From a virus: a DNA stretch of 64,000 nucleotides. The DNA lies in the IMG/VR virus record IMGVR_UViG_3300042558_004400, positions 38,800 through 102,799 of that record; one strand, 5' to 3'. The translations under genes and the position numbers were made by a program. Of this stretch, positions 3,176-64,000 are shown piece by piece. How positions within the stretch are numbered: position 1 is the stretch's first letter; every line of letters begins with the position of its first letter. A model generated the notes under the pieces. The model saw nothing but the letters and a program-made list of their open reading frames with translations, was not told the origin of the DNA and did no database searches.

Positions 3176-3183
3176 AGTGTCTC

Positions 3184-19829: not shown

Positions 19830-19845
19830 TTTATTTTCTTTCTTT

Positions 19846-40200: not shown

Positions 40201-43200
40201 ACAAAACTTGCTGTAGCGGTTGCAAGATAAGAGAGGTATTGGGCAGCTGTTGGCGTTGCTCCAAATACTGCTTTAAGATATTGTTCTAACCATTGATGGA
40301 AAAAAACAGAAAGCGTAATTCCATTATTTTGTTTCCAGACTAGTGTTGCCCAAAATCCAGTTGGATTTATAGACTGTCCGTTTGAAAAATTTAAACTACC
40401 TGTATCAAATGTTCCGTCAGTATCTCTAGCTGCTATAATTGCAGCTCTTATGGTTGCGCCAGAAAGAGCTGTGCCCCTTGTGACAGTAGTAGTAGCGGTA
40501 GCAGTAGCTGCTCCAGTGGTGGTAGTAGTGGTGACCCCAAATGAATCTTTTCCTACAAAGTATTCATCCCATCTATTCCCAGCATCTATGTCTCCAGTGT
40601 AATGAAAATTATTAAACGAAGATGCTGTTGTTTCTTGATCGGCAGAAACTATATCTGTTTTAGAAAAAACTTTTCCTGGATAACGATATTTATTAAATGG
40701 AGAAAACTTTTGTTTAATTTGTATTTTATTTTCTTCTACTTCTGAGATAGAAAAATTAGACCTAGTTATTCCACCGGTGTTTCTTGCTGATTTAAATACA
40801 ACATTTTTAAAATCAGCTTTTCCACCTATAGCAGAAGAAAAGTTTGTAGACCAATTTATTATGTATGTATTAACAGTCTTTGTTATTTCGTTAATTGAGA
40901 TACTTGTTTTAAAACCAAAATTATAATCTTTAACGTCTTGACTTCCAGGTAAAAAGTCAGTTGGAGTCCTAATGGCAGAGTTAGTTTTATTATTGTACTC
41001 AGATGAGCCCAATGCAACATAGGGATAAGTTATACTAGAAAAATCAATCTCACTAGAATTTATTGTACTGTATGCATCGAGTGATATGCCAGAAGATGGA
41101 GCTGATATGATTTGATTAAGGGCTTGAGTATTAAGTTTAAAAATTTTATAGCTAGAATTTGCTTGACCCAACAACGTATCTCCGCCTGCTGATAGCGTAG
41201 AATTGTAATCAGTAAAATTTAAAAATTTTATGTTTGGATTAGTGCATTCTAAATAAAATTCTACATTACTAAAGTCAGCGTTTATTATGCTTTCAGCATC
41301 ACCGCCATTTAGTGTGCCATCAAAATCTGCTATTAGGACTCCAGGCAAAGAGGGTGCTATCTCTCTGCAGAAAAATTGATCCGTGCTTCCTATTGCAGCC
41401 TTTAATGAAAAAGAATATTGTTGTTTTTCAAGATCAGAAAGAACAGTTATCTTTCCATTATTTACTGCACCATTAATCGTCCATAAATTTCTCCATGGTG
41501 AAACATTCCATAAAACCGTAGACTGATTAGTAGTATTGTTTGTTGCAAAGTTATTTACTTTATTTTTGTTAACATCAGAAAGATAATTATAAAAGAATTT
41601 ATTTGGTCCAATTATAGCAGTACTGACTGCAGTGCTTTGACTGCCAACTGTTCCAACGGGAAAAGCATTAGTGTCGCCATTGTTAGAGACATCTGAGATA
41701 CCTGCTCTAACGATATCATTTATTAAATAGAGAAAAGGGTTAGCGCTTATAACTAAAGACGAAGGCAGTATGTTTTGCGTATTTGTTGATCTTTTAACTA
41801 TAACGGCATTTGATCCAACAGATACTAAGGCAACTGAAGAAGATTGTGTTGAGGGACTAGCATTAAAAGTTCTTAGTGGAACAACTGAATCACTATTCAA
41901 AACTTCAGTTCTTTTTCCAAATATGCTGTACCTAGGGCTAGTTGAAGACTCATTATATTCAGAAAGATCCCAAGCATTCATGGTCGTGTGGCCAGTCTTA
42001 TATGTATCTTGTACGGTCAGGAATCCAGTTGAAGTATTGGTTATAGACAAATCTATACCTAAATAAGAAAGATTAGAAGATATCAGTGAAGCGTCTATAA
42101 AAACTGAAGCATTAGAAATTAAAGCTCTATTGACCGCATTGCCTTGAAGCTCAGTAATAGCTTGTGTTGGTGTCCACACCAAAATATCAAACCTACTATA
42201 ATCAATTGTATTATCGTCTATGTTTACTAGCCAATAGCTTCTTTGAGATTTATTGTTAGTACTTGCTGCAATAGGATTTTGAAAAAGATAATTCTGAAGA
42301 TTAAATACTGACTCCTCCATGTTTGCAAATACGTAAGCATTCTTTGCGTCAGAAGCTTGACCAGAATAAAGCACTCCGACATTTAATGTTGCCCTTTCGG
42401 AGTCTGCATAAACGTTTCTTACGTTAGAATAATTGTAAGTAATCTTTGCTAATAGTCTCCAGTTAAATGATTGAAAAGTTCTTGGATCTTGTATGGCTTT
42501 TCTAGGAGCATAAATTTTCCAGCCATCATTGGATATTCTTGTTTTTAATAATTCATTTTCTTTATAAGAAAATAATTGTGTTGAATACACTTTTCTTTCA
42601 GAAGAGCTTGGATCTATTACTTCAGATTCTTCTATAACATACTTATAGTATGGTATTGTATTTACTTTTTCTTTATAGGCAAAAAATGGATTATAAGGAA
42701 TGTTATCTTCATTCTTTTCATATTTATTATAAATAAGATAAAGATCTTTTGGATTAACTTCTTCTAATAAAACTATTATTCTATACAAATCAAGGCCTTG
42801 ATATCTTGTACCAGACAACTCTACGACTGATCTATTGTTTGTATATTTTTCTAATATAATTTTATATTTATTTTTTCCATTAGAATCTAAAAAGTTATTT
42901 CCGGAACCATCTACTACTTGTATTCCAGACTTAGATGGCTCTCTAAGTTCAGCAGATTTTTCTATTCCATTATAATTTGATACGGTTGAGTCCAACAATG
43001 TAAAAAAATTGCTTACATAATAACTATGTATAAACATTTCAGACTCAAAAGCTACTTCTCTACCAGTGTAATTAAAGTTTATGTCTGCTTGTTCTTCACT
43101 TGCAATGTAGTTACTTATAGAAACTTCAGAATTAGCTACTATAGGAGAACCAAATCCTTGATTCATTTCTTGATTAGTTTTTAAGTATCTTAAAACACCA

Positions 43201-43418
43201 AATTCATCAGCATACATTGCTGTATCTATTTCCGACGTGCTTACTGGAACAACATTTTCTGGTATCAATCCAGAAAGGTCAGAAACAGATAGGTGCATTT
43301 CTGGAGTAATCTCTGTTGAATTAAACCAACCTAAATTAATTGAATCTTCTGGAAGATGTACAGCCTTTTTTACAGCAGGCTCATTGCCTTGGTTCGTAAC
43401 ATTTTTAAAAGCTTTCAC
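37248..43418 (-). CDS. Giant tail protein with peptidoglycan-binding domain (2056 aa)
   Basis: The protein is beta-rich through most of its length. A Thr/Ala-rich linker near 960-985 and another near 1085-1110 frame an insert of about 110 residues. A PG_binding_1-like domain follows at about 1112-1180 (FVKYVQYTLLKMGY, GLYDSSTGSKIRLLQ, DGIVDSQT), which could hold the virion to the cell wall. Discoidin-like segments (ISFTGVPG, WAVRLGELEVF) come later. The start is GTG 43418 with GAGGAAT upstream. Likely a long baseplate or tail fibre component. Confidence 0.75.
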   Translation of the reverse strand: MKAFKNVTNQGNEPAVKKAVHLPEDSINLGWFNSTEITPEMHLSVSDLSGLIPENVVPVSTSEIDTAMYADEFGVLRYLKTNQEMNQGFGSPIVANSEVSISNYIASEEQADINFNYTGREVAFESEMFIHSYYVSNFFTLLDSTVSNYNGIEKSAELREPSKSGIQVVDGSGNNFLDSNGKNKYKIILEKYTNNRSVVELSGTRYQGLDLYRIIVLLEEVNPKDLYLIYNKYEKNEDNIPYNPFFAYKEKVNTIPYYKYVIEESEVIDPSSSERKVYSTQLFSYKENELLKTRISNDGWKIYAPRKAIQDPRTFQSFNWRLLAKITYNYSNVRNVYADSERATLNVGVLYSGQASDAKNAYVFANMEESVFNLQNYLFQNPIAASTNNKSQRSYWLVNIDDNTIDYSRFDILVWTPTQAITELQGNAVNRALISNASVFIDASLISSNLSYLGIDLSITNTSTGFLTVQDTYKTGHTTMNAWDLSEYNESSTSPRYSIFGKRTEVLNSDSVVPLRTFNASPSTQSSSVALVSVGSNAVIVKRSTNTQNILPSSLVISANPFLYLINDIVRAGISDVSNNGDTNAFPVGTVGSQSTAVSTAIIGPNKFFYNYLSDVNKNKVNNFATNNTTNQSTVLWNVSPWRNLWTINGAVNNGKITVLSDLEKQQYSFSLKAAIGSTDQFFCREIAPSLPGVLIADFDGTLNGGDAESIINADFSNVEFYLECTNPNIKFLNFTDYNSTLSAGGDTLLGQANSSYKIFKLNTQALNQIISAPSSGISLDAYSTINSSEIDFSSITYPYVALGSSEYNNKTNSAIRTPTDFLPGSQDVKDYNFGFKTSISINEITKTVNTYIINWSTNFSSAIGGKADFKNVVFKSARNTGGITRSNFSISEVEENKIQIKQKFSPFNKYRYPGKVFSKTDIVSADQETTASSFNNFHYTGDIDAGNRWDEYFVGKDSFGVTTTTTTGAATATATTTVTRGTALSGATIRAAIIAARDTDGTFDTGSLNFSNGQSINPTGFWATLVWKQNNGITLSVFFHQWLEQYLKAVFGATPTAAQYLSYLATATASFVADKFIEQNPVVYKAAETVTTGGRTAGAVTTSTTTTFTTSRPSTRNGYSESFVKYVQYTLLKMGYAVTINGLYDSSTGSKIRLLQHAADLGFVDGIVDSQTKSVLATYWLDLMKNNLEKYNSYLEDAPSVSKKYISAAVKYSDISNIGVTGREYRRISFTGVPGPTVLEDYIFFKVPQKANDQILHSVTVSTGEWAVRLGELEVFTSDLDLQKFYQRKKERVNIPGVFAVFTAGSHGVINSNSSKTINFSSTLSDAKWIGIRMYSRKINDEKFGPNAEGFSVKNIEFGISSPSTEIPAVYGGISTFEGKAQGTITGYTEISSADEALIDFSTISNMIQKSNVSSINVSKIDFTMSQIVENVTVTKTVSHTPSEQLRYSSTVNKLGDSISFKHEEIDVEINGLTQTNSLYDISPSIVSSFKKNGTASTSAISSGDFSLTQITGRINFYSLKTTLGIAYDSRETSPQVTVSNYFIADADNIASRQNTKNTISVKDGIVVLTDSLGLPVGFPNFSSYAPTTVNSVTNFGFLNLIWDYPTPAPYGLYWQFYNVLTKKFLGKKISYFEYMAYGANNVFIGLNAYDSDMDSGTQNNIVGTPVRAPQSEDSRPTRYICPVYSVKVKSKSKIKISSPPKTLSKFDTWFVNVGIGKFIKDITIPSSYTFTNWMKEYKGKTLKCYYDTTQIKTPNSSIFGHGYYDIHDENPKVISDNTISLRYGSVHCVQEQYDKNLYVNDNYTDASPIRPWIFVSIKNSKGKWIDIPTKEIKDFDKNTGRITFKKEIVPLDPKEIKVTYTIVSPDLMVHQINGEIIPLNPFLGAEDNSPIFIYLLPVRCEELVNNEYSVPSGFAPDGPLKFTKDSTIFDAKSTKYNPLALHIATINVNNTYTFENVSVEDMRIKGGGLKHSVNITNKFSNDLDVASYSDIYTGMSFLHPNGGYVIIQIPQEVMSNFNSRDEIYSIVRNNLTAGVSFDIQDVDGKNWRGIYDAQ
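40478..40540. repeat. Low-complexity GTA/GTG-type repeat coding a Thr/Ala linker
   Basis: A run of short, GTA/GTG-like trinucleotide repeats (plus strand) encodes the TTTTTTGAATATATTT linker of the giant tail protein. Such tracts are prone to length change and often mark domain joints. Confidence 0.65.
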
Positions 43419-48098: not shown

Positions 48099-49373
48099 CT
48101 AGACTTCGTCTAACCAAATTGAATATTCTGAAGTAACACCATTTTCTGGATGGACAAACATTAAATGTTGACATGGTCTACTCATCGAATGGAAGTATTC
48201 TTGTGCATATGTATTATAGCTTTCTGGAGAACCAGAGACTCTTAATATAGTACTTCCAAGGGTCATTTTAGCCTGTTGATGGTAATGTCCCATAAATACA
48301 TCGTCAAAACGTTCAGGAATAGCACCGTCTTTCCATCCCATTACCTTCTTATAGTAACCGTGAGTGGCGCTTGGTGACGGCATTTGGTCACCATGAATTA
48401 ATAATGTTCCATAAGAGCCAATGTAATCAACTGCATACCAGTTTCTTTCGCCTTTTCCATCTGGAATATTGAAAGATATTCTTCCTTCAGACTCAAAAAT
48501 CATTTCACAGATCTTATATAGCAGTCTGTCCATGTTCGTTTCTGGGTCGTGCTGCTTTCTCATGCGTCCACCTACGGCACCATGATTACCTATTACGGCA
48601 GTAACGTGTACGTGTTCGAAGTGCTCAAGGGCAGTTTTAAGGAAATTCCCCAGGATCTTTGGGCCATTAACCCCAACCTGTCGATATATACCAGAGTCAA
48701 TAAGGTGGCTTTGTCCTGGGAAGATTTCCTCACCCTCTACTATGTCTCCCAGTATCCAAACGTGAAGGTTCTTAACTGGATGGTGAGTTCTTTGTATGTT
48801 TGTAATCTCAATCAGCTTATCCATGTAGAGGTCCATTCTTTTATCTAGGACCTCTGTATTATAATCTGGAGTAACTTTACCCATCTGCCAGTCTGCTAGT
48901 ACGGCTACTGCAGTTTCTGATGTTGACAAAGACTTTGGAAATGACGGCTTTGGTATCTTTGGCAGTTCAAATTCGTTAAATGCATCAAAAGCTGCTTGAT
49001 AAACCACATGAGATGCTTCATCTCTTACATTCTTATATTTGTCGATTAGTCTTGCTAGTCTTCTATTTTCTGATCTTAAGAAATCAACAGTGCTAGCCTG
49101 CACGCTAACTGATGGTTGAACCGCTAGTTCCAAAAATATTGACTGCTCATCCTCATCATCTTCCATCAGATCATAATCGGGAACAAACTGTTGAGTATTG
49201 ACAACGGTAAAGTAGCGAGCTGCTTCTTTTTCTTCAATTTGTCTAGAGTCTACTTTTTCTCCTAAAACTGCACCAGGAATATCATCATCCCCACCTACAA
49301 GAGCTTCTGCATTGCCTTTATTCTTGGCTTTGACTATCTGAGTCTGTGTTACTAGATAGGTTGTTTCTGGCAT
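48099..49373 (-). CDS. Metallophosphatase with N-terminal shared domain
   Basis: Residues 1-55 match the free-standing 63-residue protein at 16869 (VT-x-T-x-x-VKA-x-NK). After a linker (60-150), a calcineurin-like phosphoesterase follows: ADWQMG, LGDIVEG, VIGNHG, IHGDQ and MGHYHQ supply the two-metal site in the usual order. It could act on DNA, nucleotides or a protein phosphate. The gene lies between baseplate genes, which is unusual for a DNA enzyme and might mean a virion or assembly role. AAAAGGAAT precedes ATG 49373. Confidence 0.85.
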   Translation of the reverse strand: MPETTYLVTQTQIVKAKNKGNAEALVGGDDDIPGAVLGEKVDSRQIEEKEAARYFTVVNTQQFVPDYDLMEDDEDEQSIFLELAVQPSVSVQASTVDFLRSENRRLARLIDKYKNVRDEASHVVYQAAFDAFNEFELPKIPKPSFPKSLSTSETAVAVLADWQMGKVTPDYNTEVLDKRMDLYMDKLIEITNIQRTHHPVKNLHVWILGDIVEGEEIFPGQSHLIDSGIYRQVGVNGPKILGNFLKTALEHFEHVHVTAVIGNHGAVGGRMRKQHDPETNMDRLLYKICEMIFESEGRISFNIPDGKGERNWYAVDYIGSYGTLLIHGDQMPSPSATHGYYKKVMGWKDGAIPERFDDVFMGHYHQQAKMTLGSTILRVSGSPESYNTYAQEYFHSMSRPCQHLMFVHPENGVTSEYSIWLDEV

Positions 49374-49398: not shown

Positions 49399-50556
49399 TC
49401 AAGATATTATAACAGAAAATATCGATACAGACCCTGCAATCATGTACTCTCTTTCAGAATTTATTCTATATATCCCTTTTGGAATTTCTTGACCATTGAC
49501 ACTTACGCTAAGAACGTTAACTGACTTAATGAGATCTGAAGATGTCCTTATCTGGGATTCTATATCACCAAAAGATAAACTACTTCCTATGGTCATGGAA
49601 TTTAAATATCTTTTGACAAACAAAGAAGCTTGATTTTCTACAGAAGTTCTAACAGACTGACTTAAGCCCGAAGGCAGCACTACATTTACTGCAACGTTAA
49701 CTGGAACTCTATCTGCTATTCTTATATTTAATTTTATTCCTACTGGCTTTTTTGAAGACAACGCAGCCAAAATGTTATCAGCCAGTCTTGCGTCTATTCT
49801 TTGAGCTTCTGGAACAACTATAATATCACAGGAACCAAGTCCGTATGAAGACTCTCTTACTCTCACATCTCTTACTCCAGATACTCCAAGGGCATTTAAT
49901 CTCATTGATTCATTGGTTCCATAAGATGATTCTTTTATTGATCTACTAATTCTGAGCCTATAAAGATCATCTGATTCCATGTTCATCATGGAGTAAACCT
50001 CTTTGGGGTTTGAACAAAACACTAATGTTCCATCTGATGAGTTAAAGTTATGCTTGGTCAAAGTTCCTATAGAGGCTGTAAAATCATTTCCCTCAAAATT
50101 GGCCATCAACCTACCAAATACTCTGGTGGTTCCTGCTAATATTATGACGTCGTCTACAAGCTTATATTGATATTGTTTAGTGGAAAAGGATGTTACGTCA
50201 TTATAAATTAATGTATTTTTTGGTATTAAAATATCAGACGCTTGGGGTGAAGATATATAAAACTGAATATTGTAGCTAGCTCTATCCTGCTCTGCTTCGG
50301 ATGCTATTGTTCTTCTTCTGACTGAATACAGTTCGCCAATTAAATCAAGAGCCCTTCCCTTTGCTGTTGACAAACTGGCTTGGTCTATGGCAAACCTTAG
50401 GGCCTCGTATAAGTCCCCTATTTCGACTGCTAAGGCCTCTGCAAAGGCTCTGGCTATGGCACCAGGGTGCGTAGCGGTAATCCCCGCATTCTTCTGCAGA
50501 GACTGTATGATCTGTGTTAAGATTTGATCTTTACTTTTACTGTATACCAGGGGCAT
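49399..50556 (-). CDS. Baseplate J-like protein (gp47 family)
   Basis: The 385-residue protein begins with the typical J-protein helical domain (ATHPGAIARAFAEALAVEI, then SLSTAKGRALDLIGELYSVRRR) followed by LIPKNTLIY and long beta segments. It forms the baseplate wedge that links hub and tail fibres in contractile tails. It is followed downstream by gp25-like and spike genes on the upstream side, the usual cluster. AAGGAG lies before ATG 50556. Confidence 0.92.
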   Translation of the reverse strand: MPLVYSKSKDQILTQIIQSLQKNAGITATHPGAIARAFAEALAVEIGDLYEALRFAIDQASLSTAKGRALDLIGELYSVRRRTIASEAEQDRASYNIQFYISSPQASDILIPKNTLIYNDVTSFSTKQYQYKLVDDVIILAGTTRVFGRLMANFEGNDFTASIGTLTKHNFNSSDGTLVFCSNPKEVYSMMNMESDDLYRLRISRSIKESSYGTNESMRLNALGVSGVRDVRVRESSYGLGSCDIIVVPEAQRIDARLADNILAALSSKKPVGIKLNIRIADRVPVNVAVNVVLPSGLSQSVRTSVENQASLFVKRYLNSMTIGSSLSFGDIESQIRTSSDLIKSVNVLSVSVNGQEIPKGIYRINSEREYMIAGSVSIFSVIIS

Positions 50557-50568
50557 CTTATCTCCTTA

Positions 50569-50952
50569 TTATAGATCTTGCGTAACGGATAGCGTTACTG
50601 GTTGATTAGCGTTGTCTAATATGTGTACATCGAACCTAATTGAATTAGCAGATGTTGGAACTGCTTCAATTGTTATGTTCGCACCCCTAAAAATTCCACC
50701 CTTACTTGGGTCTTCCAGGGCAGATCTAATCATTCTTTTGCCAATTTCTCCAGTAACCATAGTCTGAGGCATTCCGTATAGTACAGAGAGATCGCAACCA
50801 AGTTCGGGATAGGAAGCAAAATCTCCCGTTTCTGTCATTAGTCTTATATATATTTGTTGAACATTCTTCTGTCCGGAGTCTGCAACTACTGCTAAATCAT
50901 TGTTTCCAGTTAGTTTTATATCTCCAGATAGATCAAAGTATAGGTCCGGCAT
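50569..50952 (-). CDS. gp25-like baseplate wedge protein
   Basis: The 127-residue protein matches gp25/GPW family order: DLAVVADSGQKNVQQIYIRLMTETGDFASYPELGCDL, split here only for description, then GEIGKRMIRSALEDP and a C-terminal strand pair. It joins the wedge proteins in the baseplate. It lies 12 nt upstream of the J-like gene. Confidence 0.9.
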   Translation of the reverse strand: MPDLYFDLSGDIKLTGNNDLAVVADSGQKNVQQIYIRLMTETGDFASYPELGCDLSVLYGMPQTMVTGEIGKRMIRSALEDPSKGGIFRGANITIEAVPTSANSIRFDVHILDNANQPVTLSVTQDL

Positions 50953-52275: not shown

Positions 52276-52776
52276 CTATCTAATGGTTTGCCTCCGTTTA
52301 TATATTTTTCTTGCTTGATTTTGATCTATTACTACTAATAACATGCCGACTTGATTTAACGGTATAAATATTCTTTCATCTGTTGTTTCCAAGCTTCCTA
52401 GTTGTTGTACTTTGGTTCTTAAGACAGCTGGATCAGTGTCATTGGTTGTGCTGTACGCAAGTTTTAATCCCAACACATTTGTTTCACTTGGGACAGTTAG
52501 TCTAAAAGTTTTAGTTCCATGAGCTGCTGGCAGCAGGTTCATTTGCAAAAATCCAAAAGAAAAATCTCCGGTACTTCTATCTCCATTTATTGAACCAGGA
52601 CGAAAGTTTGATTCCCTTTCTGCTATGCCAACAAATAACGCAGATACTTCGTCAGAATAAAAACCACTCATCATCATCAACTGCATTAACTCATCTCGGG
52701 TCAATGCTGTCTGCTGATCGTTCTTATAAGATTTTTTAAATTTACCTATTGACTCTGCGCCTACTGTGCTAGCCAT
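52276..52776 (-). CDS. Lytic transglycosylase-like middle part of the tail lysin
   Basis: The segment VSALFVGIAERESNFRPGSINGDRSTGDFSFGFLQMN, given only in part here, carries the transglycosylase pattern ERESNFRP...GLLQ-type and would cut peptidoglycan. The frame is open upstream to about 52945, well before ATG 52776, and that unlabelled part encodes HVNFGSDNNHRNHIHVSFG, the H-x-H end of an M15-type peptidase. It therefore continues the protein at 52946-54166 after a one-base frame break. Confidence 0.65.
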   Translation of the reverse strand: MASTVGAESIGKFKKSYKNDQQTALTRDELMQLMMMSGFYSDEVSALFVGIAERESNFRPGSINGDRSTGDFSFGFLQMNLLPAAHGTKTFRLTVPSETNVLGLKLAYSTTNDTDPAVLRTKVQQLGSLETTDERIFIPLNQVGMLLVVIDQNQARKIYKRRQTIR

Positions 52777-52945
52777 ACCAGAAGAAGACGAGATTCCAGT
52801 TATTGCAGCAGCTATTTCTGGAGTGATAAAAGTTCCTGCTCTATGTGGACCAAAACTAACATGTATATGATTTCTATGATTGTTATCTGAACCAAAGTTT
52901 ACATGTGGAGCTATATTGGGATATTTTTTTCTAATAGCAGAACTC

Positions 52946-54166
52946 TTATCTTCTAGTCCGGCTATCCTTTAATCCTAACTCTGCACTGATTTCATTGCTA
53001 ATCATTATTAAATCTGGATGGAGATCATAAGAAAGCGTTTGCATGTGAGTTAGAAGAAGATCTAACGCTTTCATGTAGTCAACTTTTTTAGCTACAAAAT
53101 TGTTTTTTCCTAAAGTTATTTCTTGAGCTTTACTTACGCCTAATCCCATTATGTCAAATCCTCTACCAAAAGCATGGTCGCTAACGCTATTGGTATTGCC
53201 TAAATCTTCACTAGTCAATGCTTTAAAATTATTACCTATGATACCTCTTTCGGTACCTTGTCCGCCTCTAATGTGCAAGCTGTTTGTCAGCTGTGACATT
53301 AATTCTATTAATGCTGCAGAAACTTTACATAATTTTTTGCCAGTTCCTAATAATGTTTTATCAATTGTAACCGAACCTAATTTACCTGTTCCATCTGCTG
53401 TATATCCTCCACCTTGAACAATGTCGAATCCTAATGTTTTAAGATCTTGTTTTTCTGAATTTGTATCAAAGTCTAAATTAAAATCATAGAAATTTGCATC
53501 AAAATTAGCTTTATTATTTAGTTCTTTTAATTTTTTAGCATACTCTTGTTTTTCTTGTTCTGACAATTGATCTACTACAGCTATTGCTCTTGATCCACCG
53601 TTGTACGCTTCAGCATCCGTAGATAGGACATAACCCTGAAGACTATGCGCTAACGCCTCTCCTTGAGATCCCGTTACAGTACCTGTACTAGAATTTGTTC
53701 CACCTGCAGCAGATCCAGAGTCAGTAGCTGATTTTGAATTTATAACAGCATCCATGGCCGAACTAAATCCACCAGGTGCATAACCAGTCGTCATCAAGGA
53801 TTGTTTTGCAATTTCTTGTCTTGCATCTGCTCCAGTTAAATACGTATTTGCATCCGGATTGTTGGGGTCAATTATCTTTACGTTGTCATCTATATCTCCA
53901 GCCATGGATATTATGCCGTGCAAAGAGGACTGCACGTTTTGTATGTATCCATTTATTGCAAAAGCAGGATTGCGATAGATGCCTTCACCCTGAATAACTT
54001 TTAATGGATCTGAAGATGTTAAAGTCTTGCCAGTTAAGTCTTCTCTAGATTGGGTAGTATTGGTGTAGGTTGGTTTTCCATTTGGATAAAATGTTTCAGA
54101 TATTTTTGTTGCACTAGACTGAGAATTATTTAGATCATCAACATTAAGATTGATATCACCTGACAT
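52946..54166 (-). CDS. M15-type peptidase part of a tail peptidoglycan hydrolase
   Basis: The 406-residue frame is disordered and Gly/Ser-rich at first. Near residue 320 it reads SVSDHAFGRGFDIMG, the H-x6-D zinc-binding pattern of M15 peptidases (D-Ala-D-Ala type). The matching H-x-H lies in the open frame at about 52860. Rejoining with the two downstream frames gives a hydrolase of about 720 residues with peptidase and transglycosylase domains. A strong GGAGGAGG site precedes ATG 54166. It is expected in the tail tip for cell-wall entry. Confidence 0.75.
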   Translation of the reverse strand: MSGDINLNVDDLNNSQSSATKISETFYPNGKPTYTNTTQSREDLTGKTLTSSDPLKVIQGEGIYRNPAFAINGYIQNVQSSLHGIISMAGDIDDNVKIIDPNNPDANTYLTGADARQEIAKQSLMTTGYAPGGFSSAMDAVINSKSATDSGSAAGGTNSSTGTVTGSQGEALAHSLQGYVLSTDAEAYNGGSRAIAVVDQLSEQEKQEYAKKLKELNNKANFDANFYDFNLDFDTNSEKQDLKTLGFDIVQGGGYTADGTGKLGSVTIDKTLLGTGKKLCKVSAALIELMSQLTNSLHIRGGQGTERGIIGNNFKALTSEDLGNTNSVSDHAFGRGFDIMGLGVSKAQEITLGKNNFVAKKVDYMKALDLLLTHMQTLSYDLHPDLIMISNEISAELGLKDSRTRR

Positions 54167-57100
54167 ACTTACCTCCTCCTCCGACTGTATACTCAGAAAC
54201 TGGATTAAGTTGAGGCATATAGTCCTTTGGCGTTTCTACTGATTTCTGTTGGTACTGAGTTCCTGTCATATAAACTTGTGCTAGGCCTGAAGCTATCAAT
54301 TCCCAGTTAAGAGTAACTGGTCTTCCATCTTCATGGTACTCATCCCAAGATACAACTGGCCATTCAGAAGCTGTTTCGTACAGTTCATTAGTTATCAGAA
54401 CATTCATTAAAACATTAAATAGTTTCTTTTCTTCTAAGGTCATGGAATCAAGAGGATCGGAATCTCCGGCCTTAACAAAATGTTCTAACAAATCTGTCAT
54501 TCCATCAAGCGATGCATAAATTTTATTAAAATTAATAAACATTATTGAATCTTGATAGAATTTTTTTCTTACATTTTCTTTAATAGTTTCTTTAAAGTCT
54601 ACAACAAATTGTGTATTTTGTTGTGCAATAAATATACTTCTAAGTTCTTGAATTAAGTTTTGATAAACATTTGAATCTGTTGTAGAAAAGACTGTAGCCA
54701 TATATCTATCTTCGGCATTTGCGTAGCTTCCAGATTTATATGCAGATGTGTAGTTAGATGGTATATTTTGTTCTGATCCGGGTTCATAAGCATTATCGGT
54801 AGTTATTATTTTAGATGGATCTTTTGGATTGATTCTTAGAACTATAAGTTTGCCTTTGACTGCTTGCTGAACATAGTTCATAGCCTTTCCTGCAGAAGAG
54901 TTTTCATTGATAAACGCCGTTTTTGTTCCATCACTAGTGTTACCTGTTCCAAATTTAACTAATTCAGCTGCGTTTATTCCGTCAAATCTAACTGTATAAG
55001 TATTTGCTGATGCTTCTCCGCCAAATATAACATCTTGTACTTCGAAAGTGTCACCGTCTTTAACATGCGTAACTTTGACTATTGCTTTGAAGGATTCGTT
55101 TAATTCAGTTTTATCTGGGCCAATTCCAGAATACTTTAAAATTTGAGAATGAACAATTGCATTTTCAAGACTTATATGCCTGATTAAGCTTCCAATTTCT
55201 TTTTCTCTCCAACCCATACTTTTAAGTAGATCATCACTTCTAATGTATAAGTTGCCTTCTGCAGAACGAGTATTAGACCTAACTCCCAAAATTCCTGGAA
55301 GTATTTTTATAGAATGATACCTACCGACTACCATGCCTTGATTAAAGGATAGCCCAGCATCCATTGGTTGACCGTTTTTATTTAAGTACTGAATATAACA
55401 TCCGTGTTGATCCAAAACATTATCTCTAATCTTCTTCCAACCATTCCAGATTCCGTCACTTAACAACGCCATTCCTCCAGCAGCAACTCCAGCCGCCGTA
55501 CCACCAGAAACTACACCTGCTACAGCTATGACGCCAGCTGATATTACTGGCATTGCGAGAGCACTAAAGACAGCCATTCCAGTAGATCCTGCTTGTCTAC
55601 CAGTGTTTGCTTTAGATAACGCTTCTAGTCTTTCTCTTGCACTTGGCAATTGCTCTGCAGCTTGGTTAGCCATAATGTCTTTAACCAAAGCAGAGTGTCC
55701 GTGAGTATATTGCATGGCACCTGTTAGCTGCGTCTTTAGACTTTGAGACAATGAGTCAACAGATACATCACCATTTGTAGTTAGTAGAGAATTGCTAGAT
55801 GGGTTACCAAGTAAGAACCTTGAGCTATTTCTTAAATCTTGCATACTAAAGTGTCCTGATATCCAAGATGACATAAACCATCTTGCTGGATCGTTAACTG
55901 TTACAAATGCATTTGGAGTAATAGAAGTTACAAATCCCATTTGAGGTGTGAAGTGATGGACTACTTGTTCTACTTCAAATATTCCATACATTCTTTCATA
56001 AACGTCTGCTAGATACACAAGGTCAAATGGTCTTATGTCTGCATTACCTATAACTATTAACTCTCCACCATAAATATCTTTTAATGATTCTTTCAAATGT
56101 GAGAGTGCTACCCTCTTTGCTGTTAGCTCATCTGGTTCACCTGAAGCTGATTTTGCTATTCCTCTAAATGTTTCCATTGGATGCATAATAGGATGAAGAA
56201 TTCCAGTTATTCCTGAACCCTTGAGGTTATCAAAAAATATTCCTGTTTCTACAGTTTTCTCAACTTGCCTTTCAGGCGGAGCTGCTTTATCTAATGCTAC
56301 AGTTACCGGATACTTTCCATCTGAAACTGCAGTTATTTGAGTAGCAACGTTTCCTATATTTTCTTTTATAGTATTAGAAAGTATATGCGTGAAAGAACTA
56401 ATGTAATGTATTCTTTGGAATGGTTCTCTGACTTCTACAACTGGCTCTCCATACTCTCTGGTGAATGGATTATCGACTGCCCTTAAAAGCGTGCCTGGTC
56501 TGCCCATGGAATAATAAATTGAATCATTATAAGCTTTATTTAATATATTAGCTTGTTGAGTAAAGTTTTCTAGTTGAGTTAAACCATATCCCATTTGTTG
56601 CATTGACATTTGAAACATGTTCATAAGCCCGCCAAGAGCAGATGTAAAGGCATTATATATAGGCCCTATGTTTCTGTCCCAAAAGTTATTAATATCTGTC
56701 TTCAACCCTGTAAAGAAGTTTGATGCACTGTTTCCTTCTTTAGCGTGTTTTTGCAATAGCTTAGTAAATGCACCACTATCTGATGCGTAGTTAACATCAT
56801 AGTCTATAAAGGCTTGCCAGATTACATCGACTGGCCTAAAACTCCAATCGTCATCATCTCCACCAAGCAGCCAAGATCCAACGGACTCTACAACGGCACC
56901 TCCGACAGCACCGACTACTGCTACAGGGCTTCCAACTGTTGCTACAATTCTAGCGGTGTCCCCTCCAACTGCTCCAGCTATTGCAGGCGCTACACCTGAA
57001 CCTATTTTAGCACCTGTTGCTCCAACTCGTTTTTTGTCTGGTCTTAAGACTAACCACGCTCTTGCATATGGATCTTGCCACATCTTTTGTCTAAAGACTC

Positions 57101-60100
57101 CAACCATTAATAGGTACAACTGCTTAGGAGTTTTTATTTTTGCCAAATATTCTTCTACTTGGTCTTCAGTAATTTGCGTATCAAAATCAAAGTTAGGATT
57201 GTTTTTTGAGGCTTCTTCAATTCTTCTAAAGTCTGCTGCTGATGCTGGAGCAGTGGTCGTAGTAGGAGTTGGTGATGTAGTAGAACCGGCTGCTGCCTTT
57301 GCTTTTGCTTCACTGAATAGATACATCCTCGCATATTGCTCTACAGTAGATTTAATGCCAGCAACTTTTTTGTATACCAAAGCATTTAATGCGTCAGTTA
57401 AACCTTTTCCTTCATTGATTATTGGCTTTGAATTTTCATCATATCCATCAAAGCCTTGGTTGACATATTCTTTAATTGCAACATCTACAGCTTCTACTCT
57501 TGAGGAATTTTTATTTACCCAGTCAGCCCCCAGCAAAGTTTCAAATTCTCTTGAGCCTCCATTCCCTTTGCTGACGTTGAAGTCTTGCAAAAAGTTTTCC
57601 GTTTTGCTACTTAACAATTGGAATATCATATCAGTTGATTCTTTATCATCATCTGGATCTAAATTATATATAGCTTTCCATATATTTTTTGTTGAAGAAT
57701 AATTATGATATCCAATTCTAAATTGATCCCAAATGTTTTGAGCTTCGCCAACTGTTCTTCCGTTTCCAGCTATAACTTTAACTTCTGAGTCAAACTTTTC
57801 ATCAAACATAGACCTTGCTTGGATAGATGTGGTATCTATTATGTCATATATAGCAGAAAAATGAGTAAAAGTTTTATCTCCTGATTCTTTTGTTGCTTTT
57901 TTATCTTGTTCTCTTTTGTCTCTTAGAGTATCTTGCTTTAGGTCATCGTAATTAGCATTTGCTACACTGTCAAAATATTGCGTATAGTTTCCGCCACTGG
58001 ACAAGAACTCTTGCATTTCTGCTACTGTCCTTAAAGCCAATGTATCATCAATACTATAAACAAAAGATGGCCTAATTCCAACTCCAGATCTATCCTTAGA
58101 TATAAAGCTTTTTCCTATAGCTGGTAAATCATTTGCTTCTGGACCTGTTCTGTCTGGGTTTTGTCTATCTTCAACACTTCTAAAGGATCCAAAACCTATT
58201 ATCATTTGATTGTCTTTATCCGGCGTATCAGTGCTATCACTGCTTCTTCTGTCTAAACTTTTAAGAGTAAATGTTTTAGCTTGGTTCATGGAAGTTGTTA
58301 CGACTCCCAGTGGAGTTGAGTCTGGCACAAAAGTAAATCTGCAATCTACAAGATCTAGTTCTTGTGCACCAATTGTGTCATACTGTTTATCATTGTCGGC
58401 TCTAAGTTGAGTATCATTATTTAATTTATCTGGTAAATTTTCTGATGGAAAAACAATCTTTCCATTGTCTTTTATCAAAAGACCCAAGAAGTAGGCAGCA
58501 TCTGGAGAAACAATAGCGTCTATATCTGTTGCTCCCCAAAGGAAATATGCTGGTGCACATACTACTGCTTGTTTTGTATTTTCATTATAAACTAAAACTT
58601 TTCTTTTCTTATAATCTGCAGCGGTCCCAACTAAATCTCCGTCAGTAAAGTTATAGGCGCTGTTAAAAGCTTCCCTTGCTTTACTTCCTGCTTCGCCTGC
58701 CTTATATGGCCATTTCATAGCAATATAGAATTGTTCGTGCAAAGCATCTTTGGGCATACCCCACTCAGCAAAAGTTAACTCAGTGCTTGGATCGTAGGAG
58801 TCTTTGTATGCAGGATCTAAATCAAAATAAAAATCTTTATAAGTTTCTGATAATTGTACTCTACCATTTGCAAAGGTAATGTCAGATGCTCCTCGTCTAG
58901 CTATTGGCAGTGGCATCGTTATAACTTGCGATGCAGATATTCCACTAATGCTATTTGTGTTGAGCCCAGATGGATCAAATGCCGCACTGTTCTTGAGTAT
59001 CTCGTCTAATCCCATTGACTTAAGCTTATTGGCGAAAGAAAAATTAAAATCTAAACTCTTAACGTCGCCCTTTGTAGTAACTAAGGCTGTATCTCCAGAG
59101 CTTCCCTCTTGATCAAGTAGAGATTTTTCTACTAATGAAATATTAACTATATTAGACATTCTATCTTGTACGTCTTGTAAACTGTCTATTTTAATAATTT
59201 TGTCAAAGTCAAGAGATTGCAATGTGCCAGTTGTTCTATCTGTAAAGAATGGATATCTAAATCTTATTGGAAGCTGCCCAACCTGTTGGTGATCTTCTTG
59301 TATTCCTCTTTCTATGCCGGACTGTCCAAATGGTAAATGAAAACCAACTTGAGTTTTACCTTTTATTTTTGGCAATTTTGAAACTAGGCCGTTTGCGTTA
59401 TAATATTCTGCTCTTTTATCATCGGTTAAATCTATAAGCTTCCCACCAAGACCATTTCCGTTGGTAGAGCCTGCTTCAAATATGCCAGTAAAACTTGCCA
59501 TTTGTTTTGAAAAGCTTGCCAAATCGTCAGATATACTAGACTCTCTTAGTGCCAAAGCTGCTGCAGCTTCTCCAAGCGGAGAAGTTTCTTTATTGATTCT
59601 AGATAAGATATCATGAAGTTCTGAATCTGGTCCAGAATAGCCAGGTATATTAACTCCATCTTTTTCAGCTTGCTCTTCTGATGGGAAACCTGTAGAGATA
59701 GGAACTACTCCAGATGTGTAAAGCCAATGTGGCTTACCATAGAATATAGTTGATCTATCTTCAAATGGCCTTATTGCTACAATATAGTTTGGCAATAGTC
59801 GTGCACACATTTGAAACATATCCCAAACGGATCTCATATATGTTTGTGCCCTAAACGAAACCTCATCGTATAAGTCATCATCAGTATTATTGGTTAGTCC
59901 CATGGTAGCAAAAAGGCTCTTAAATCCCCTTCCACCCATTGTGTGTAGCAATTTACTTCCCAGTACTGCTGCACCGAATGTTGGATTGATTATACTTGCT
60001 GCTACTATTTGAGTTTTACTATCTCCAACGATTCCTTTTACTGCTCCAGATATTCCGCCTGCTTTTTGTTCTTCTGGAATTGAATTTAAACCACCCTGTC

Positions 60101-63100
60101 TTGCTTCCAAAACTGCAGAGGCATCGGTTGAAGTGGTTGATTCTTGTATTAAGTTAGACCAACTTGACCCAGAAAGTCTATCAAGATATCCAAACTTTTC
60201 ATCCATCATCTTAGCTTCATCAAGGCTGGCCATTGTAGTCCATCCATCGTCTAAGTCTCCGCCCAGAAATTGAGCTATTCCAATGCCGTTGCCTGGATAG
60301 ATGTTTCTTTTGAATATTTCTAAGTCTCTTTGTGTACTAAAGTTTGACCACAAAGATTGCATTGCTCCAACGACGGGTGTTCTAACACTTCCTCCAGCAG
60401 ACTGCATCCCTCCAACAGAGCCAAATGGATTACCTCCAGGAAGAATTCCATTTATCCCTGCTTGCAATCCTCCAGTCATAATATTCATTGCGCTATTTCC
60501 AGCAAGTCCTATTGTTCCAGTTACTGGATTATTGCCAACTGCATTAAAAGCATTGGTTACGCTCTGTTTGTAAGCTCGAGATTTTGCTGCTTCAGCTGCA
60601 GTCAGTGGCTCATATAAAATTGATCCAAAATGTCTTATTCCAAATTTGTTTTCAGAAAACACTGCTCCTCTAGTAGCGTAAGCAAATGCTTCTTTAGTTC
60701 TAGAAGTTCCCATTGATAATAGACGTATCATCAAGTCTCTTGGCTCTGACATCCAAAGTCCAGTATCTACTCCACCATCTATTTTTCCACTATCACCCTT
60801 TTTATTTATAGAGTTAATGATAGGGCTTAATTCAATTGCATCGGATTGACAGATTATAGTTATTATTTCTCCGGTTTCAACCTCTGTAATAATTCCATTA
60901 AAAACTGTTTGCAAAGAATTGGGATTAGATCCATATCCAGCTCTTAAGTGAATTCTAATTCCTGGTTTAATTCTCATATTATTAATTTGTACAATATAAG
61001 AAGAATTCATATTTGACTTAAGATTAAAAGATCTAGTTAATAATTTGTCTACTATCTCTGCGGTACCTGAGGTTAAGTCTGGTTTGTCTATATTGTATAC
61101 TTGTCCGTCAGTAAGCAATGAGGCGACAGTCATCTCTGGCTTGCTTAATTTAGAGTAAGTGTTAGACAGTCTCAACACTAATGTGTCTCCAAGAATGTCT
61201 TCAGATTGAACTATCGAGAAATCAATAACAGATTGTAATCCAAAAAAGTTATCAAATAATTTTACGCCAGCAAAGAAGTTTGAGTCATCTATAAGCCAAA
61301 GCATGTAGGTTGGAAAAGCTCTTAACATTCTTCCGGATATATCTCTATATTGAGAGTCCATCATCATTTTTTGCCAATGCTTACCAAGACTACCCATTGA
61401 ACTATTAGTTGCAGCTGACTGCATCTTATCGGTCCCCGGATGTGCTATTGTAGTCATGTAGCTATTTAGTGACTTTGCTCCAGAAACTCCGGTGTGCGAT
61501 TCTTGGGGATCATTGTCTAGGCAAGTTGGATCAGATATCTGAGTAGTTAATGTGCCTGTTGCTTTTTTGCTAATAGGATCTCTTTTTACATTTTCTTCAG
61601 CTATGTAAAATTTTCCATCAGAACTATTTGAATGACCAAATATGTAACCGCCATCTGGGGTTTGATATATTGCTGGTATCTTACCAACCGATTCAGAATC
61701 TGCAGCAGGGATGTAATGTGTAATTCCAAAATGCTCTGAATCATCTGGATCAAAAGACACTTGATTCATTGCATCGGAATTACTATCCGCTGCTAAAACA
61801 AGCCTATTAAATGCTTGAAGCTGTTCTATCGAACCAGATAAAAGATTTCCTACTTTTAATTCTCCATCTCTAGTGCCAAATTTTAAATCACCAAAATCAT
61901 ATAAAGTATTTTCATCATCTGTAAATTTTTCCACCATATCTTTTAAGATGTTTGGATATTGGCTAGCTAATGAACCGCTTCCAAGACCTTGGCTTTCTAC
62001 TAGCGTATCATTGTTTGTGTCAAGGAATGCAATTTCAAATATCTTAATTGCTTCAAAAGAATTAAGCCCTCTATCTTTGACTAGGTAGTCTTTAACGTTA
62101 TTCAAGCTTTCCTTGTTCCCTATCAACATTTCTTTAACTTGATTAACTATAGGTGTATACTCTGCAGTAGTCATGGCTCCAGACTTATTCAGTCTACCGT
62201 TTTCTACGCCGGGAAGCTTATAGTTATCAACCACGTTATTAATGACATCATTATCAAACATTTCAAACGATCTAAAATAAAAATCTGGGTCGAAAGAACC
62301 CACATGCTTATTTGTTTCCTCGTCTATTATTGCTAACGGCATGTCTGGGTATGTGTTAATGGACGACCATTTTTGTTTTAATCTTAAGAATGGATTTCTT
62401 TTAGTTCCAAATTCTTTAACTAATTCTATTTGAGATTCAGAACTAATTGCTTCTCTTTTTTGTTGAAAAATATCAAAGTCAACAAAAGACAATTGAACAT
62501 TGTAGACGTGAGGGAAAGAGGGTATAGTATCTACACTGTAGGATAGAGGAAGAACATATTTAATACCAGACAGTGCTGTTAATATGTTTTTGATTCCCAT
62601 AAACCCAATAACTCCAGCTGCTTGCTCTAAGCGAGCTAATCCACTTAGGAAGTCAAACATTTTTGTTATTTTAGTTAATTCTTTTTCTCCAAATATAGTC
62701 AAAGACATTGAAACAAAAGAGTCATTGCAGCCAATGTATTGAAACGTTGGTTCGTCTTGCATTTGCAGTTGCATTCTTGCAAGGTTATTGGAAAGTGTTG
62801 TAGAAACTGAATTTACTATAACAGCTTCAGGATCCAATTTAACTTTCATCATGGGAACTTCCCATTCTTTTATGTTAAACTTTCCACCCTTTTTATTTGC
62901 ATTTGCTTCAAATATTGCCTGTATACTTAAATCACTAAAGTATCTTTCGTACAGACTAACGTTAAAAGCGTCTGCATATTCTCTTTCTAACTTACCTCTA
63001 ATGTTTCTCCATTGTTTGGAGTCTCTATCGGTTATGGGTGGAGTAAGAAGTTTTGCTTCTTTGTCAGCAGCGTTGTTTATACTGTAAGCTAGATAACCCT

Positions 63101-64000
63101 TTGGCGCTTTTGCTAATAAGTATATTTCCCATTTATCATCTTTTAGTTTTTGGGTTTCTTCTGCAGAAGGTTGTGCTGGTACTTCAATATCATTAGGCGA
63201 TTTATTGCTCTTGATATAGTTGTACTTAGGAGATGCAGTTATTCCATTTGAATTTAAATAATCTATTGCAATTGCATCATACACTTTATCAAAGACATTA
63301 GAGCTATTAGCTCCTGCTAAGACAACTTCAACTATTTGTTGAGCTATTTTTTTCTTGTATGTACTTACATTTATATCCTGAGAAAGTTGCACTACGGTAT
63401 CTAAGTTTCTATATAAAGCTGCTTCAGATATATCAATTCCAACTTTACTTAGAATGCCTTCCCAAAAACCTCTACCAATGTCAGTTAAGTTTTTTTCTTC
63501 GGTAGATCTAAATGTTGAAACGTCAGGGGAGAACAACTTCGATTGAACTTGATTTGGTATATAAAATTCAATACTATTTCCGTTAGACCATTCATCTGCT
63601 ATATTCATAGAAAGAGTACTTGAATTAGTGTAGTTTTTTTGTCTTTCTTCAATCAATCTAAAATCTGCTGCTGAAGCTGGATCATTTGTTGCGTCGATAA
63701 TTGTTTCAGTAACTTCTTCTTGTACCAACAAAAATTCTTCATTTGAACTTTCCGAAAGAGAGATAGCTGCTCTTCCCATATAGTATCTAAATTTTGCCCA
63801 GTCAATAGCTTGATTAAAATCTTTAATCATCGGTAGGAATGGTTTGTGATTAAACACATTCAACTGAAGGTCTACTACAATAGCAAACGGATAATTAGGA
63901 ACTGTAGATATAGATATATTTGACATAGCTATACCAGTGATGCCAAATACGCTATTCAAGTATTGATTTCTAATAGGTAGTATCGGTGCATATTTGAATG
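54156..64000 (-). CDS. Giant tail/baseplate hub protein with SNase-like C-terminus (partial)
   Basis: The frame is open from the stop at 54156 to the right edge; the TTG at 63959 has no ribosome binding site, so more than 3,280 residues are encoded and the N-terminus is missing. Counting residues from 63959, a hub-like domain lies near 985-1060 (IKPGIRIHLRAGYG, VFNGIITEVETGE). Gly/Ala-rich hydrophobic stretches lie near 1140, 2330 and 2790-2840. A region like a late-control hub follows near 2640-2690. From about 2960 a thermonuclease-like domain is seen (VKDGDTFEV, VRFDGINAAEL, a closing GLAQVYM). The linker PASAADFR-x-IEE occurs near 100 and 2240. Confidence 0.85.
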   Translation of the reverse strand, partial: FKYAPILPIRNQYLNSVFGITGIAMSNISISTVPNYPFAIVVDLQLNVFNHKPFLPMIKDFNQAIDWAKFRYYMGRAAISLSESSNEEFLLVQEEVTETIIDATNDPASAADFRLIEERQKNYTNSSTLSMNIADEWSNGNSIEFYIPNQVQSKLFSPDVSTFRSTEEKNLTDIGRGFWEGILSKVGIDISEAALYRNLDTVVQLSQDINVSTYKKKIAQQIVEVVLAGANSSNVFDKVYDAIAIDYLNSNGITASPKYNYIKSNKSPNDIEVPAQPSAEETQKLKDDKWEIYLLAKAPKGYLAYSINNAADKEAKLLTPPITDRDSKQWRNIRGKLEREYADAFNVSLYERYFSDLSIQAIFEANANKKGGKFNIKEWEVPMMKVKLDPEAVIVNSVSTTLSNNLARMQLQMQDEPTFQYIGCNDSFVSMSLTIFGEKELTKITKMFDFLSGLARLEQAAGVIGFMGIKNILTALSGIKYVLPLSYSVDTIPSFPHVYNVQLSFVDFDIFQQKREAISSESQIELVKEFGTKRNPFLRLKQKWSSINTYPDMPLAIIDEETNKHVGSFDPDFYFRSFEMFDNDVINNVVDNYKLPGVENGRLNKSGAMTTAEYTPIVNQVKEMLIGNKESLNNVKDYLVKDRGLNSFEAIKIFEIAFLDTNNDTLVESQGLGSGSLASQYPNILKDMVEKFTDDENTLYDFGDLKFGTRDGELKVGNLLSGSIEQLQAFNRLVLAADSNSDAMNQVSFDPDDSEHFGITHYIPAADSESVGKIPAIYQTPDGGYIFGHSNSSDGKFYIAEENVKRDPISKKATGTLTTQISDPTCLDNDPQESHTGVSGAKSLNSYMTTIAHPGTDKMQSAATNSSMGSLGKHWQKMMMDSQYRDISGRMLRAFPTYMLWLIDDSNFFAGVKLFDNFFGLQSVIDFSIVQSEDILGDTLVLRLSNTYSKLSKPEMTVASLLTDGQVYNIDKPDLTSGTAEIVDKLLTRSFNLKSNMNSSYIVQINNMRIKPGIRIHLRAGYGSNPNSLQTVFNGIITEVETGEIITIICQSDAIELSPIINSINKKGDSGKIDGGVDTGLWMSEPRDLMIRLLSMGTSRTKEAFAYATRGAVFSENKFGIRHFGSILYEPLTAAEAAKSRAYKQSVTNAFNAVGNNPVTGTIGLAGNSAMNIMTGGLQAGINGILPGGNPFGSVGGMQSAGGSVRTPVVGAMQSLWSNFSTQRDLEIFKRNIYPGNGIGIAQFLGGDLDDGWTTMASLDEAKMMDEKFGYLDRLSGSSWSNLIQESTTSTDASAVLEARQGGLNSIPEEQKAGGISGAVKGIVGDSKTQIVAASIINPTFGAAVLGSKLLHTMGGRGFKSLFATMGLTNNTDDDLYDEVSFRAQTYMRSVWDMFQMCARLLPNYIVAIRPFEDRSTIFYGKPHWLYTSGVVPISTGFPSEEQAEKDGVNIPGYSGPDSELHDILSRINKETSPLGEAAAALALRESSISDDLASFSKQMASFTGIFEAGSTNGNGLGGKLIDLTDDKRAEYYNANGLVSKLPKIKGKTQVGFHLPFGQSGIERGIQEDHQQVGQLPIRFRYPFFTDRTTGTLQSLDFDKIIKIDSLQDVQDRMSNIVNISLVEKSLLDQEGSSGDTALVTTKGDVKSLDFNFSFANKLKSMGLDEILKNSAAFDPSGLNTNSISGISASQVITMPLPIARRGASDITFANGRVQLSETYKDFYFDLDPAYKDSYDPSTELTFAEWGMPKDALHEQFYIAMKWPYKAGEAGSKAREAFNSAYNFTDGDLVGTAADYKKRKVLVYNENTKQAVVCAPAYFLWGATDIDAIVSPDAAYFLGLLIKDNGKIVFPSENLPDKLNNDTQLRADNDKQYDTIGAQELDLVDCRFTFVPDSTPLGVVTTSMNQAKTFTLKSLDRRSSDSTDTPDKDNQMIIGFGSFRSVEDRQNPDRTGPEANDLPAIGKSFISKDRSGVGIRPSFVYSIDDTLALRTVAEMQEFLSSGGNYTQYFDSVANANYDDLKQDTLRDKREQDKKATKESGDKTFTHFSAIYDIIDTTSIQARSMFDEKFDSEVKVIAGNGRTVGEAQNIWDQFRIGYHNYSSTKNIWKAIYNLDPDDDKESTDMIFQLLSSKTENFLQDFNVSKGNGGSREFETLLGADWVNKNSSRVEAVDVAIKEYVNQGFDGYDENSKPIINEGKGLTDALNALVYKKVAGIKSTVEQYARMYLFSEAKAKAAAGSTTSPTPTTTTAPASAADFRRIEEASKNNPNFDFDTQITEDQVEEYLAKIKTPKQLYLLMVGVFRQKMWQDPYARAWLVLRPDKKRVGATGAKIGSGVAPAIAGAVGGDTARIVATVGSPVAVVGAVGGAVVESVGSWLLGGDDDDWSFRPVDVIWQAFIDYDVNYASDSGAFTKLLQKHAKEGNSASNFFTGLKTDINNFWDRNIGPIYNAFTSALGGLMNMFQMSMQQMGYGLTQLENFTQQANILNKAYNDSIYYSMGRPGTLLRAVDNPFTREYGEPVVEVREPFQRIHYISSFTHILSNTIKENIGNVATQITAVSDGKYPVTVALDKAAPPERQVEKTVETGIFFDNLKGSGITGILHPIMHPMETFRGIAKSASGEPDELTAKRVALSHLKESLKDIYGGELIVIGNADIRPFDLVYLADVYERMYGIFEVEQVVHHFTPQMGFVTSITPNAFVTVNDPARWFMSSWISGHFSMQDLRNSSRFLLGNPSSNSLLTTNGDVSVDSLSQSLKTQLTGAMQYTHGHSALVKDIMANQAAEQLPSARERLEALSKANTGRQAGSTGMAVFSALAMPVISAGVIAVAGVVSGGTAAGVAAGGMALLSDGIWNGWKKIRDNVLDQHGCYIQYLNKNGQPMDAGLSFNQGMVVGRYHSIKILPGILGVRSNTRSAEGNLYIRSDDLLKSMGWREKEIGSLIRHISLENAIVHSQILKYSGIGPDKTELNESFKAIVKVTHVKDGDTFEVQDVIFGGEASANTYTVRFDGINAAELVKFGTGNTSDGTKTAFINENSSAGKAMNYVQQAVKGKLIVLRINPKDPSKIITTDNAYEPGSEQNIPSNYTSAYKSGSYANAEDRYMATVFSTTDSNVYQNLIQELRSIFIAQQNTQFVVDFKETIKENVRKKFYQDSIMFINFNKIYASLDGMTDLLEHFVKAGDSDPLDSMTLEEKKLFNVLMNVLITNELYETASEWPVVSWDEYHEDGRPVTLNWELIASGLAQVYMTGTQYQQKSVETPKDYMPQLNPVSEYTVGGGGKYVR

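What the first reader, a model, noticed from the sequence alone, without database searches (positions are those of the whole stretch)
54156..55090. Thermonuclease-like domain fused to a giant tail protein
Seen: the last ~300 residues carry DGDTFEV, VRFDGINAAE and GLAQVY in SNase order, with a helical insert near 3095-3190. The SNase Arg and Glu after the first strand are kept, but the D-T before Glu reads N-A and the YGR Arg is missing (DRYMATVF), so catalysis may be weak or lost. Inference: a virion-carried nuclease or nucleic-acid-binding tip domain delivered with the tail.
Basis: partly seen in the sequence, partly recalled or inferred. Interest (0 to 1): 0.68.

Follow-up and report, generated by a model that had tools for sequence, protein, structure and literature searches.

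The report
Nuclease domain on phage baseplate hub
The end of this very large phage tail protein is a staphylococcal-nuclease-type domain with its three main catalytic residues intact, so these phages probably carry a nuclease on the part of the tail that pierces the host; a related fusion was noted in 2007, but its purpose has never been tested.

Summary
The last ~290 residues of the 54156-63998(-) ORF form a staphylococcal nuclease (SNase) domain: PHROG endonuclease profile E=7e-6; trimmed AlphaFold2 model pLDDT 87.6; all 50 listed PDB fold matches are SNase or SND1. The 'missing' YGR arginine is present: DRYMATVF aligns with YGRTLATIF, so Arg35, Glu43 and Arg87 are all kept. N-A for D-T is real, but N is the usual residue at that site, also in the phages' own stand-alone SNases. 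In 69 related C-terminal domains, 56 keep all three catalytic residues and 13 lack both Glu43 and Arg87; none lacks only one. The losses fall in one clade plus one single lineage, suggesting an enzyme usually under selection.

The protein is a baseplate hub. Distant hub homologues in Moorella and Bacillus phages and Bacillus/Cytobacillus phage-like plasmids carry an SNase at the N-terminus; others are annotated as lysozyme or glucosaminidase proteins. An N-terminal SNase on such a hub was reported in 2007 (PMC2147016). New here are the C-terminal placement in a large environmental phage clade, the helical insert, and the pattern of active-site retention and loss. Activity, presence in virions, and substrate are untested. 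Verdict: new variant of a known kind.

The parts
54156..63998 (-). Giant baseplate hub ORF (stop at 54156), 5' end cut off by the contig end
   Evidence: homologous to the annotated baseplate/hub proteins of KLEB27-3 and ME3; L002 has the complete 3436-aa ORF
55101..55430 (-). End of the hub core (RDNVLDQHGCYIQYLNKNGQPMDAG...) and helical linker before the SNase
   Evidence: Alignment A3: this is where homology to the KLEB27-3 and MTATph1 hubs ends
54246..55103 (-). SNase-like domain including the helical insert (P0001 residues 110-395)
   Evidence: phrog_452 E=7e-6; AF2 pLDDT 87.6, pTM 0.87; listed PDB matches all SNase or SND1; HHalign P=6.6e-8
55050..55058 (-). DGD: equivalents of D19 and D21 (D21 is a calcium ligand)
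   Evidence: Alignment
54987..54989 (-). R148 = SNase Arg35
54972..54974 (-). N153 = SNase Asp40 position; N is the usual residue in this family
54963..54965 (-). E156 = SNase Glu43
54705..54707 (-).
54366..54683 (-). Helical insert of about 105 residues (P0001 250-355) between SNase strand 5 and helix 2
   Evidence: AF2 secondary structure; shorter in L129, L123, L133, L161
54270..54347 (-). WDEYHEDGRPVTLNWELIASGLAQVY: SNase helix-2 region, the most conserved C-terminal stretch
52946..54166 (-). Next gene: M15-peptidase-like protein (SDHAFGRGFD motif), overlapping the hub stop by 11 bases
   Evidence: Weak Extensin-like_C match E=0.17 here and 0.026 in L004; Peptidase_M15_4 0.035 in L062; VanY 1e-4 in the C-terminus of the MTATph1 hub
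52276..52776 (-). Tail-lysozyme-like protein
   Evidence: Phage_lysozyme2 E=0.014; 4e-4 in L012
19428..19868 (-). Stand-alone SNase gene of the same phage (DGDT, GVNTPE, YGR)
   Evidence: PF00565 E=7.2e-15
49399..50556 (-). Baseplate_J protein: tail-module context
   Evidence: PF04865 E=9e-12
50569..50952 (-). Sheath initiator/baseplate protein: contractile-tail context
   Evidence: PF10934 E=0.0018, below its cut-off; phrog_975 E=5e-5

Best explanation
The C-terminal ~290 residues are an SNase-family domain fused to the baseplate hub of a contractile-tailed phage. It is probably a working calcium-dependent nuclease carried on the virion. Like the peptidoglycan hydrolases encoded beside it (and fused to related hubs), it most likely acts outside the cytoplasm at the cell envelope during attachment and entry, where calcium is available. 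There it would cut extracellular or envelope-associated DNA or RNA. Shown: the SNase fold by profile and model, retention of R35/E43/R87, the hub family, recurrence at both ends of the hub, and joint loss of E43 and R87 in two lineages. Inferred: catalysis, presence in virions, place of action and substrate.
For: SNase identity: phrog_452 E=7e-6, 13 of 30 relatives, HHalign P=6.6e-8, AF2 pLDDT 87.6 with only SNase/SND1 among listed PDB matches, sub-threshold Pfam SNase in relatives L129, L063 and L122. Catalysis: 56 of 69 domains have R35+E43+R87, 13 lack E43 and R87 together, none lacks only one; at least two losses on the tree. In the 56, D19, D21, T22 and R35 are also invariant; E43 and R87 were used to pick those rows. 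Hub: homology to annotated baseplate/hub proteins, Baseplate_J and sheath initiator nearby. Recurrence: N-terminal SNase in MTATph1 (PF00565 E=1.3e-7), KLEB27-3, B. velezensis pAD3, Cytobacillus and several viral contigs. Envelope link: neighbouring M15-like and lysozyme-like genes; hub homologues annotated as lysozyme or glucosaminidase proteins; the same inference in print (PMC2147016).
Against: D40 and T41 are N and A here, which may weaken calcium binding. Pfam does not reach SNase for the window sequence itself. A sister clade keeps the domain after losing catalytic residues, so it also has a non-catalytic role. PDB fold E-values are only about 1e-3 with TM about 0.5 by target length, because of the insert. 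No virion proteomics or assay exists.
Confidence: 0.6

Rival explanations
1. A former SNase now kept as a structural or nucleic-acid-binding OB-fold module of the hub, with no catalysis in this phage.
For: D40N and T41A; the 12-member sister clade plus L149 kept the domain after losing E43 and R87; the most conserved C-terminal residues (W357, P358, W362, D363, N375) are not SNase catalytic residues.
Against: R35, E43, R87, D19, D21 and T22 are all intact here and across 56 relatives; the phage's stand-alone SNase has the same N at position 40.
Confidence: 0.27
2. An active nuclease that works inside the host cell, on host or rival DNA, either when translated late or after delivery with the tail.
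Against: SNases need millimolar calcium, scarce in the cytoplasm (general knowledge); the phage already has a stand-alone SNase; a hub subunit is assembled into the tail; free activity would endanger the phage's own DNA.
Confidence: 0.1
3. Not an SNase: an unrelated baseplate OB-fold domain with chance motifs.
For: OB folds are common in baseplates (general knowledge); no Pfam match for the window sequence.
Against: Profile, fold and residue evidence all point to SNase; compact relatives are canonical, e.g. L133 DGDT...RFAGINTPE...YGRTLAIIF.
Confidence: 0.03

Closest known systems
Staphylococcal nuclease family (Pfam PF00565 / PHROG 452)
   Same: Predicted fold order beta1-3, helix, beta4-5, helix; D19, D21, R35, E43, R87; GLAQVY end.
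   Different: C-terminal part of a >3,400-aa hub; ~105-residue helical insert before helix 2; N-A at D40-T41; below the Pfam cut-off.
BtI1 hub protein (0305phi8-36 gp147 family), Hardies et al. 2007, PMC2147016
   Same: An SNase domain fused to a giant myovirus baseplate hub.
   Different: There it is N-terminal, in Bacillus; here it is C-terminal with a helical insert, in an environmental phage clade.
Moorella phage MTATph1 WPA89519.1 (annotated 'endolysin')
   Same: Homologous hub core with an SNase domain over the Pfam cut-off.
   Different: SNase at residues ~150-250; M15-type peptidase fused at the C-terminus.
Bacillus phage KLEB27-3 gp035, B. velezensis pAD3 WP_207169201.1, Cytobacillus pN497 WP_243509945.1
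   Same: Same hub family; N-terminal SNase motifs; the two plasmid proteins are annotated 'nuclease'.
   Different: N-terminal position; KLEB27-3 ends soon after the hub core.
Uncultured Caudovirales phage baseplate hub protein A0A6J5M9K0
   Same: 45% identical across the whole query in BFVD, an apparent orthologue with the C-terminal domain.
   Different: Annotated only as a baseplate hub protein.

Membership tests
SNase family (PF00565) | SNase fold | tested here: met
   AF2 model pLDDT 87.6; all 50 listed PDB matches are SNase or SND1
SNase family (PF00565) | Catalytic R35, E43, R87 | tested here: met
   R148, E156, R242
SNase family (PF00565) | Calcium ligands D21, D40, T41 | tested here: inconclusive
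   D127 kept; N153 and A154 replace D40 and T41; N is also the rule at D40 in the stand-alone phage SNases
SNase family (PF00565) | Pfam score over the curated cut-off | tested here: not met
   No hit for P0001; relatives L129, L063, L122 reach 17-18 bits against 21; PHROG 452 does match. Filed as a divergent relative, not as a Pfam-curated member
SNase family (PF00565) | Calcium-dependent nuclease activity | not testable with these tools
   Needs an assay
Baseplate hub family of 0305phi8-36 gp147 | Sequence homology of the hub core | tested here: met
   tblastn to KLEB27-3, MTATph1 and ME3; the ME3 record cites homology to the 0305phi8-36 hub. The 0305phi8-36 record itself was not available
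Baseplate hub family of 0305phi8-36 gp147 | T4 gp27 / P2 gpD fold in the core | tested here: inconclusive
   Profile searches of two core regions against PDB sequences found nothing; the published assignment used other methods
Virion-associated nuclease | Present and active in purified virions | not testable with these tools
   Needs proteomics and zymography

The most novel reading that the evidence does not exclude
A virion-borne nuclease is a recurrent, interchangeable entry enzyme of giant-hub myoviruses, placed at either end of the hub in different lineages and swapped with peptidoglycan hydrolases, so that cutting nucleic acid at the cell surface is a selected step of infection.
Probability: 0.35. 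Interest if true: 0.68.

Novelty: new variant of a known kind. Interest (0 to 1): 0.48.

Why it matters
The 2007 paper left open why a hub would carry an SNase domain. The fusion now appears in dozens of environmental phage contigs and at the opposite end of the hub in others, with catalytic residues either all kept or lost together. That makes the question testable: natural apparently active and apparently inactive forms exist in otherwise similar hubs. If active, it adds nucleases to the enzymes that tailed phages carry for entry.

Tried and rejected
Direct Pfam and PDB sequence searches of the window domain gave nothing useful. DNA-level and tblastn searches of the C-terminal part in named phages found no match. 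PDB profile searches of the hub core found no solved relative. The 0305phi8-36 record is not held. A genome-contig scan gave one short Kiritimatiellae MAG contig, too little to name a host; the DNA polymerase is too widespread to indicate a host. The idea that separate SNase ORFs in L062 and L063 are genuine gene splits was dropped: the reading continues across the break, so a frameshift or sequence error is as likely. Rows L094 and L160 in the residue table were misaligned and were left out of the counts. Literature searches for tail thermonucleases found only PMC2147016 to the point.

Full report
What is there. The window is bases 38800-102799 of a 102,799-base virus record. The ORF at 54156-63998 on the minus strand is open at the contig end, so its N-terminus is missing; the closest relative, L002 (89% identical over the C-terminal 424 aa), has a complete 3436-aa ORF. 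The C-terminal 424 residues are P0001.

Is it SNase? Yes, by several lines of evidence. P0001 matches PHROG 452 'endonuclease' at E=7e-6, and 13 of 30 relatives match it too. A profile of 55 relatives aligns with stand-alone phage SNases at HHalign P=6.6e-8. An AlphaFold2 model of the trimmed domain has pLDDT 87.6 and pTM 0.87 with the SNase element order; all 50 listed PDB matches are SNase or SND1, the best superpositions at 3.6-3.9 A rmsd. Distant relatives with a shorter insert (L129, L123, L133, L161) look canonical, for example DGDT...RFAGINTPE...YGRTLAIIF in L133, and three relatives show a sub-threshold Pfam SNase match at E 0.005-0.008. Pfam itself does not find SNase in the window sequence.

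Catalytic residues. In P0001 numbering: D125, D127, R148 (R35), N153 (D40), A154 (T41), E156 (E43), R242 (R87). Aligned with relatives reading YGRTLATIF and with the Moorella hub's FGRWLVVAY, the Arg of DRYM is that arginine. N at D40 is the majority residue in the family and is also found in nearly all stand-alone SNases of these phages (GVNTPE), so it is not by itself a sign of decay.

Retention and loss. Of 69 non-identical, correctly aligned C-terminal domains, 56 have R35, E43 and R87; 11 keep R35 but lack E43 and R87; 2 lack all three; none lacks only one of E43 and R87. On the tree the losses are one supported clade of 12 plus the single row L149, at least two events. In the 56 rows, D19, D21, T22 and R35 are also invariant; E43 and R87 are invariant by the choice of rows and are not independent evidence. 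This suggests that catalysis is under selection in most of the family, while the domain can persist without it.

The protein that carries it. The rest of the protein is homologous to the baseplate protein of Bacillus phage KLEB27-3, a protein labelled 'endolysin' in Moorella phage MTATph1, and the baseplate hub protein of Acinetobacter phage ME3, whose record cites the hub of 0305phi8-36. Baseplate_J and sheath-initiator genes lie downstream, followed by virion structural protein genes. Immediately downstream of the hub are an M15-peptidase-like gene and a tail-lysozyme-like gene, both weak matches; the MTATph1 hub carries a VanY/M15 peptidase as its own C-terminus.

Recurrence at both ends. 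Homology to KLEB27-3 and MTATph1 ends near the start of P0001. Those hubs have an SNase at the other end: MTATph1 residues 154-248 match PF00565 at 1.3e-7. KLEB27-3, B. velezensis pAD3, Cytobacillus pN497 and viral contigs L094, L099, L104, L105, L107 and L109 show N-terminal DGDT...R...E...R-type SNase motifs, with some departures such as TQTPE in KLEB27-3. N- and C-terminal hub SNase profiles align at P=4.5e-12. Whether these are separate captures or one relocated domain was not resolved. Other hub homologues on Bacillus and Paenibacillus plasmids are annotated lysozyme or glucosaminidase proteins. Many short-hub relatives show no SNase by profile search.

Prior knowledge. Hardies et al. 2007 (PMC2147016) reported that the BtI1 hub has an N-terminal SNase-related domain where 0305phi8-36 has a transglycosylase, said its utility was obscure, and suggested the domains come from stand-alone genes. 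The window phage does have a stand-alone SNase at 19428-19868, as do many relatives.

How it most likely works. Inference: a calcium-dependent nuclease displayed on the hub that cuts nucleic acid at the cell surface or in the envelope during entry, alongside the wall hydrolases. The calcium requirement of SNases (general knowledge) and the interchange with wall-degrading domains favour an extracytoplasmic site. Nothing here shows activity, virion incorporation or substrate.

Verdict. Real, slightly misread, and related to a published oddity. The C-terminal version, the insert, the wide environmental spread and the retention/loss pattern are new details that make an old question testable.

Noticed in passing
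48099-49373 (-): A calcineurin-like phosphoesterase (motifs LADWQMG, GDIVEGE, GNHG, GHYH; phrog_284 'exonuclease' E=1e-42) sits between the Baseplate_J gene and a 1553-aa virion protein gene; L002 has a same-length ORF (424 aa) in the same place.
   Followed up: partly
19428-19868 (-): Stand-alone SNase of the same phage with canonical YGR and GVNTPE (N at position 40); 24 of 31 related viral contigs have one too.
   Followed up: yes
52276-54166 (-): M15-like peptidase and tail-lysozyme-like ORFs are separate here and in L002 (416 and 166 aa), but relatives such as L012, L062 and L126 have a single ORF of 514-580 aa in this place carrying a tail-lysozyme match.
   Followed up: partly
L004, L009, L012, L044, L049, L053, L126: The hub is encoded by two to four consecutive or overlapping ORFs in several relatives rather than one giant ORF; not checked whether these are true splits or sequence errors.
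   Followed up: partly
L067:4792-11469: The MTATph1 hub is annotated 'endolysin' although it is a 2225-aa hub with SNase and M15-type domains.
   Followed up: yes
L013, L015, L018, L032, L044, L125 and near relatives: A clade keeping the SNase-like domain with E43 and R87 replaced (GIIASS, REKSLGTVF): a natural, apparently catalytically dead comparison set.
   Followed up: yes
37248-43418 (-): A 2056-aa protein near the tail module with a peptidoglycan-binding domain (PF01471 E=8e-8).
   Followed up: no
24287-26383 (-): B12-dependent ribonucleotide reductase gene.
   Followed up: no
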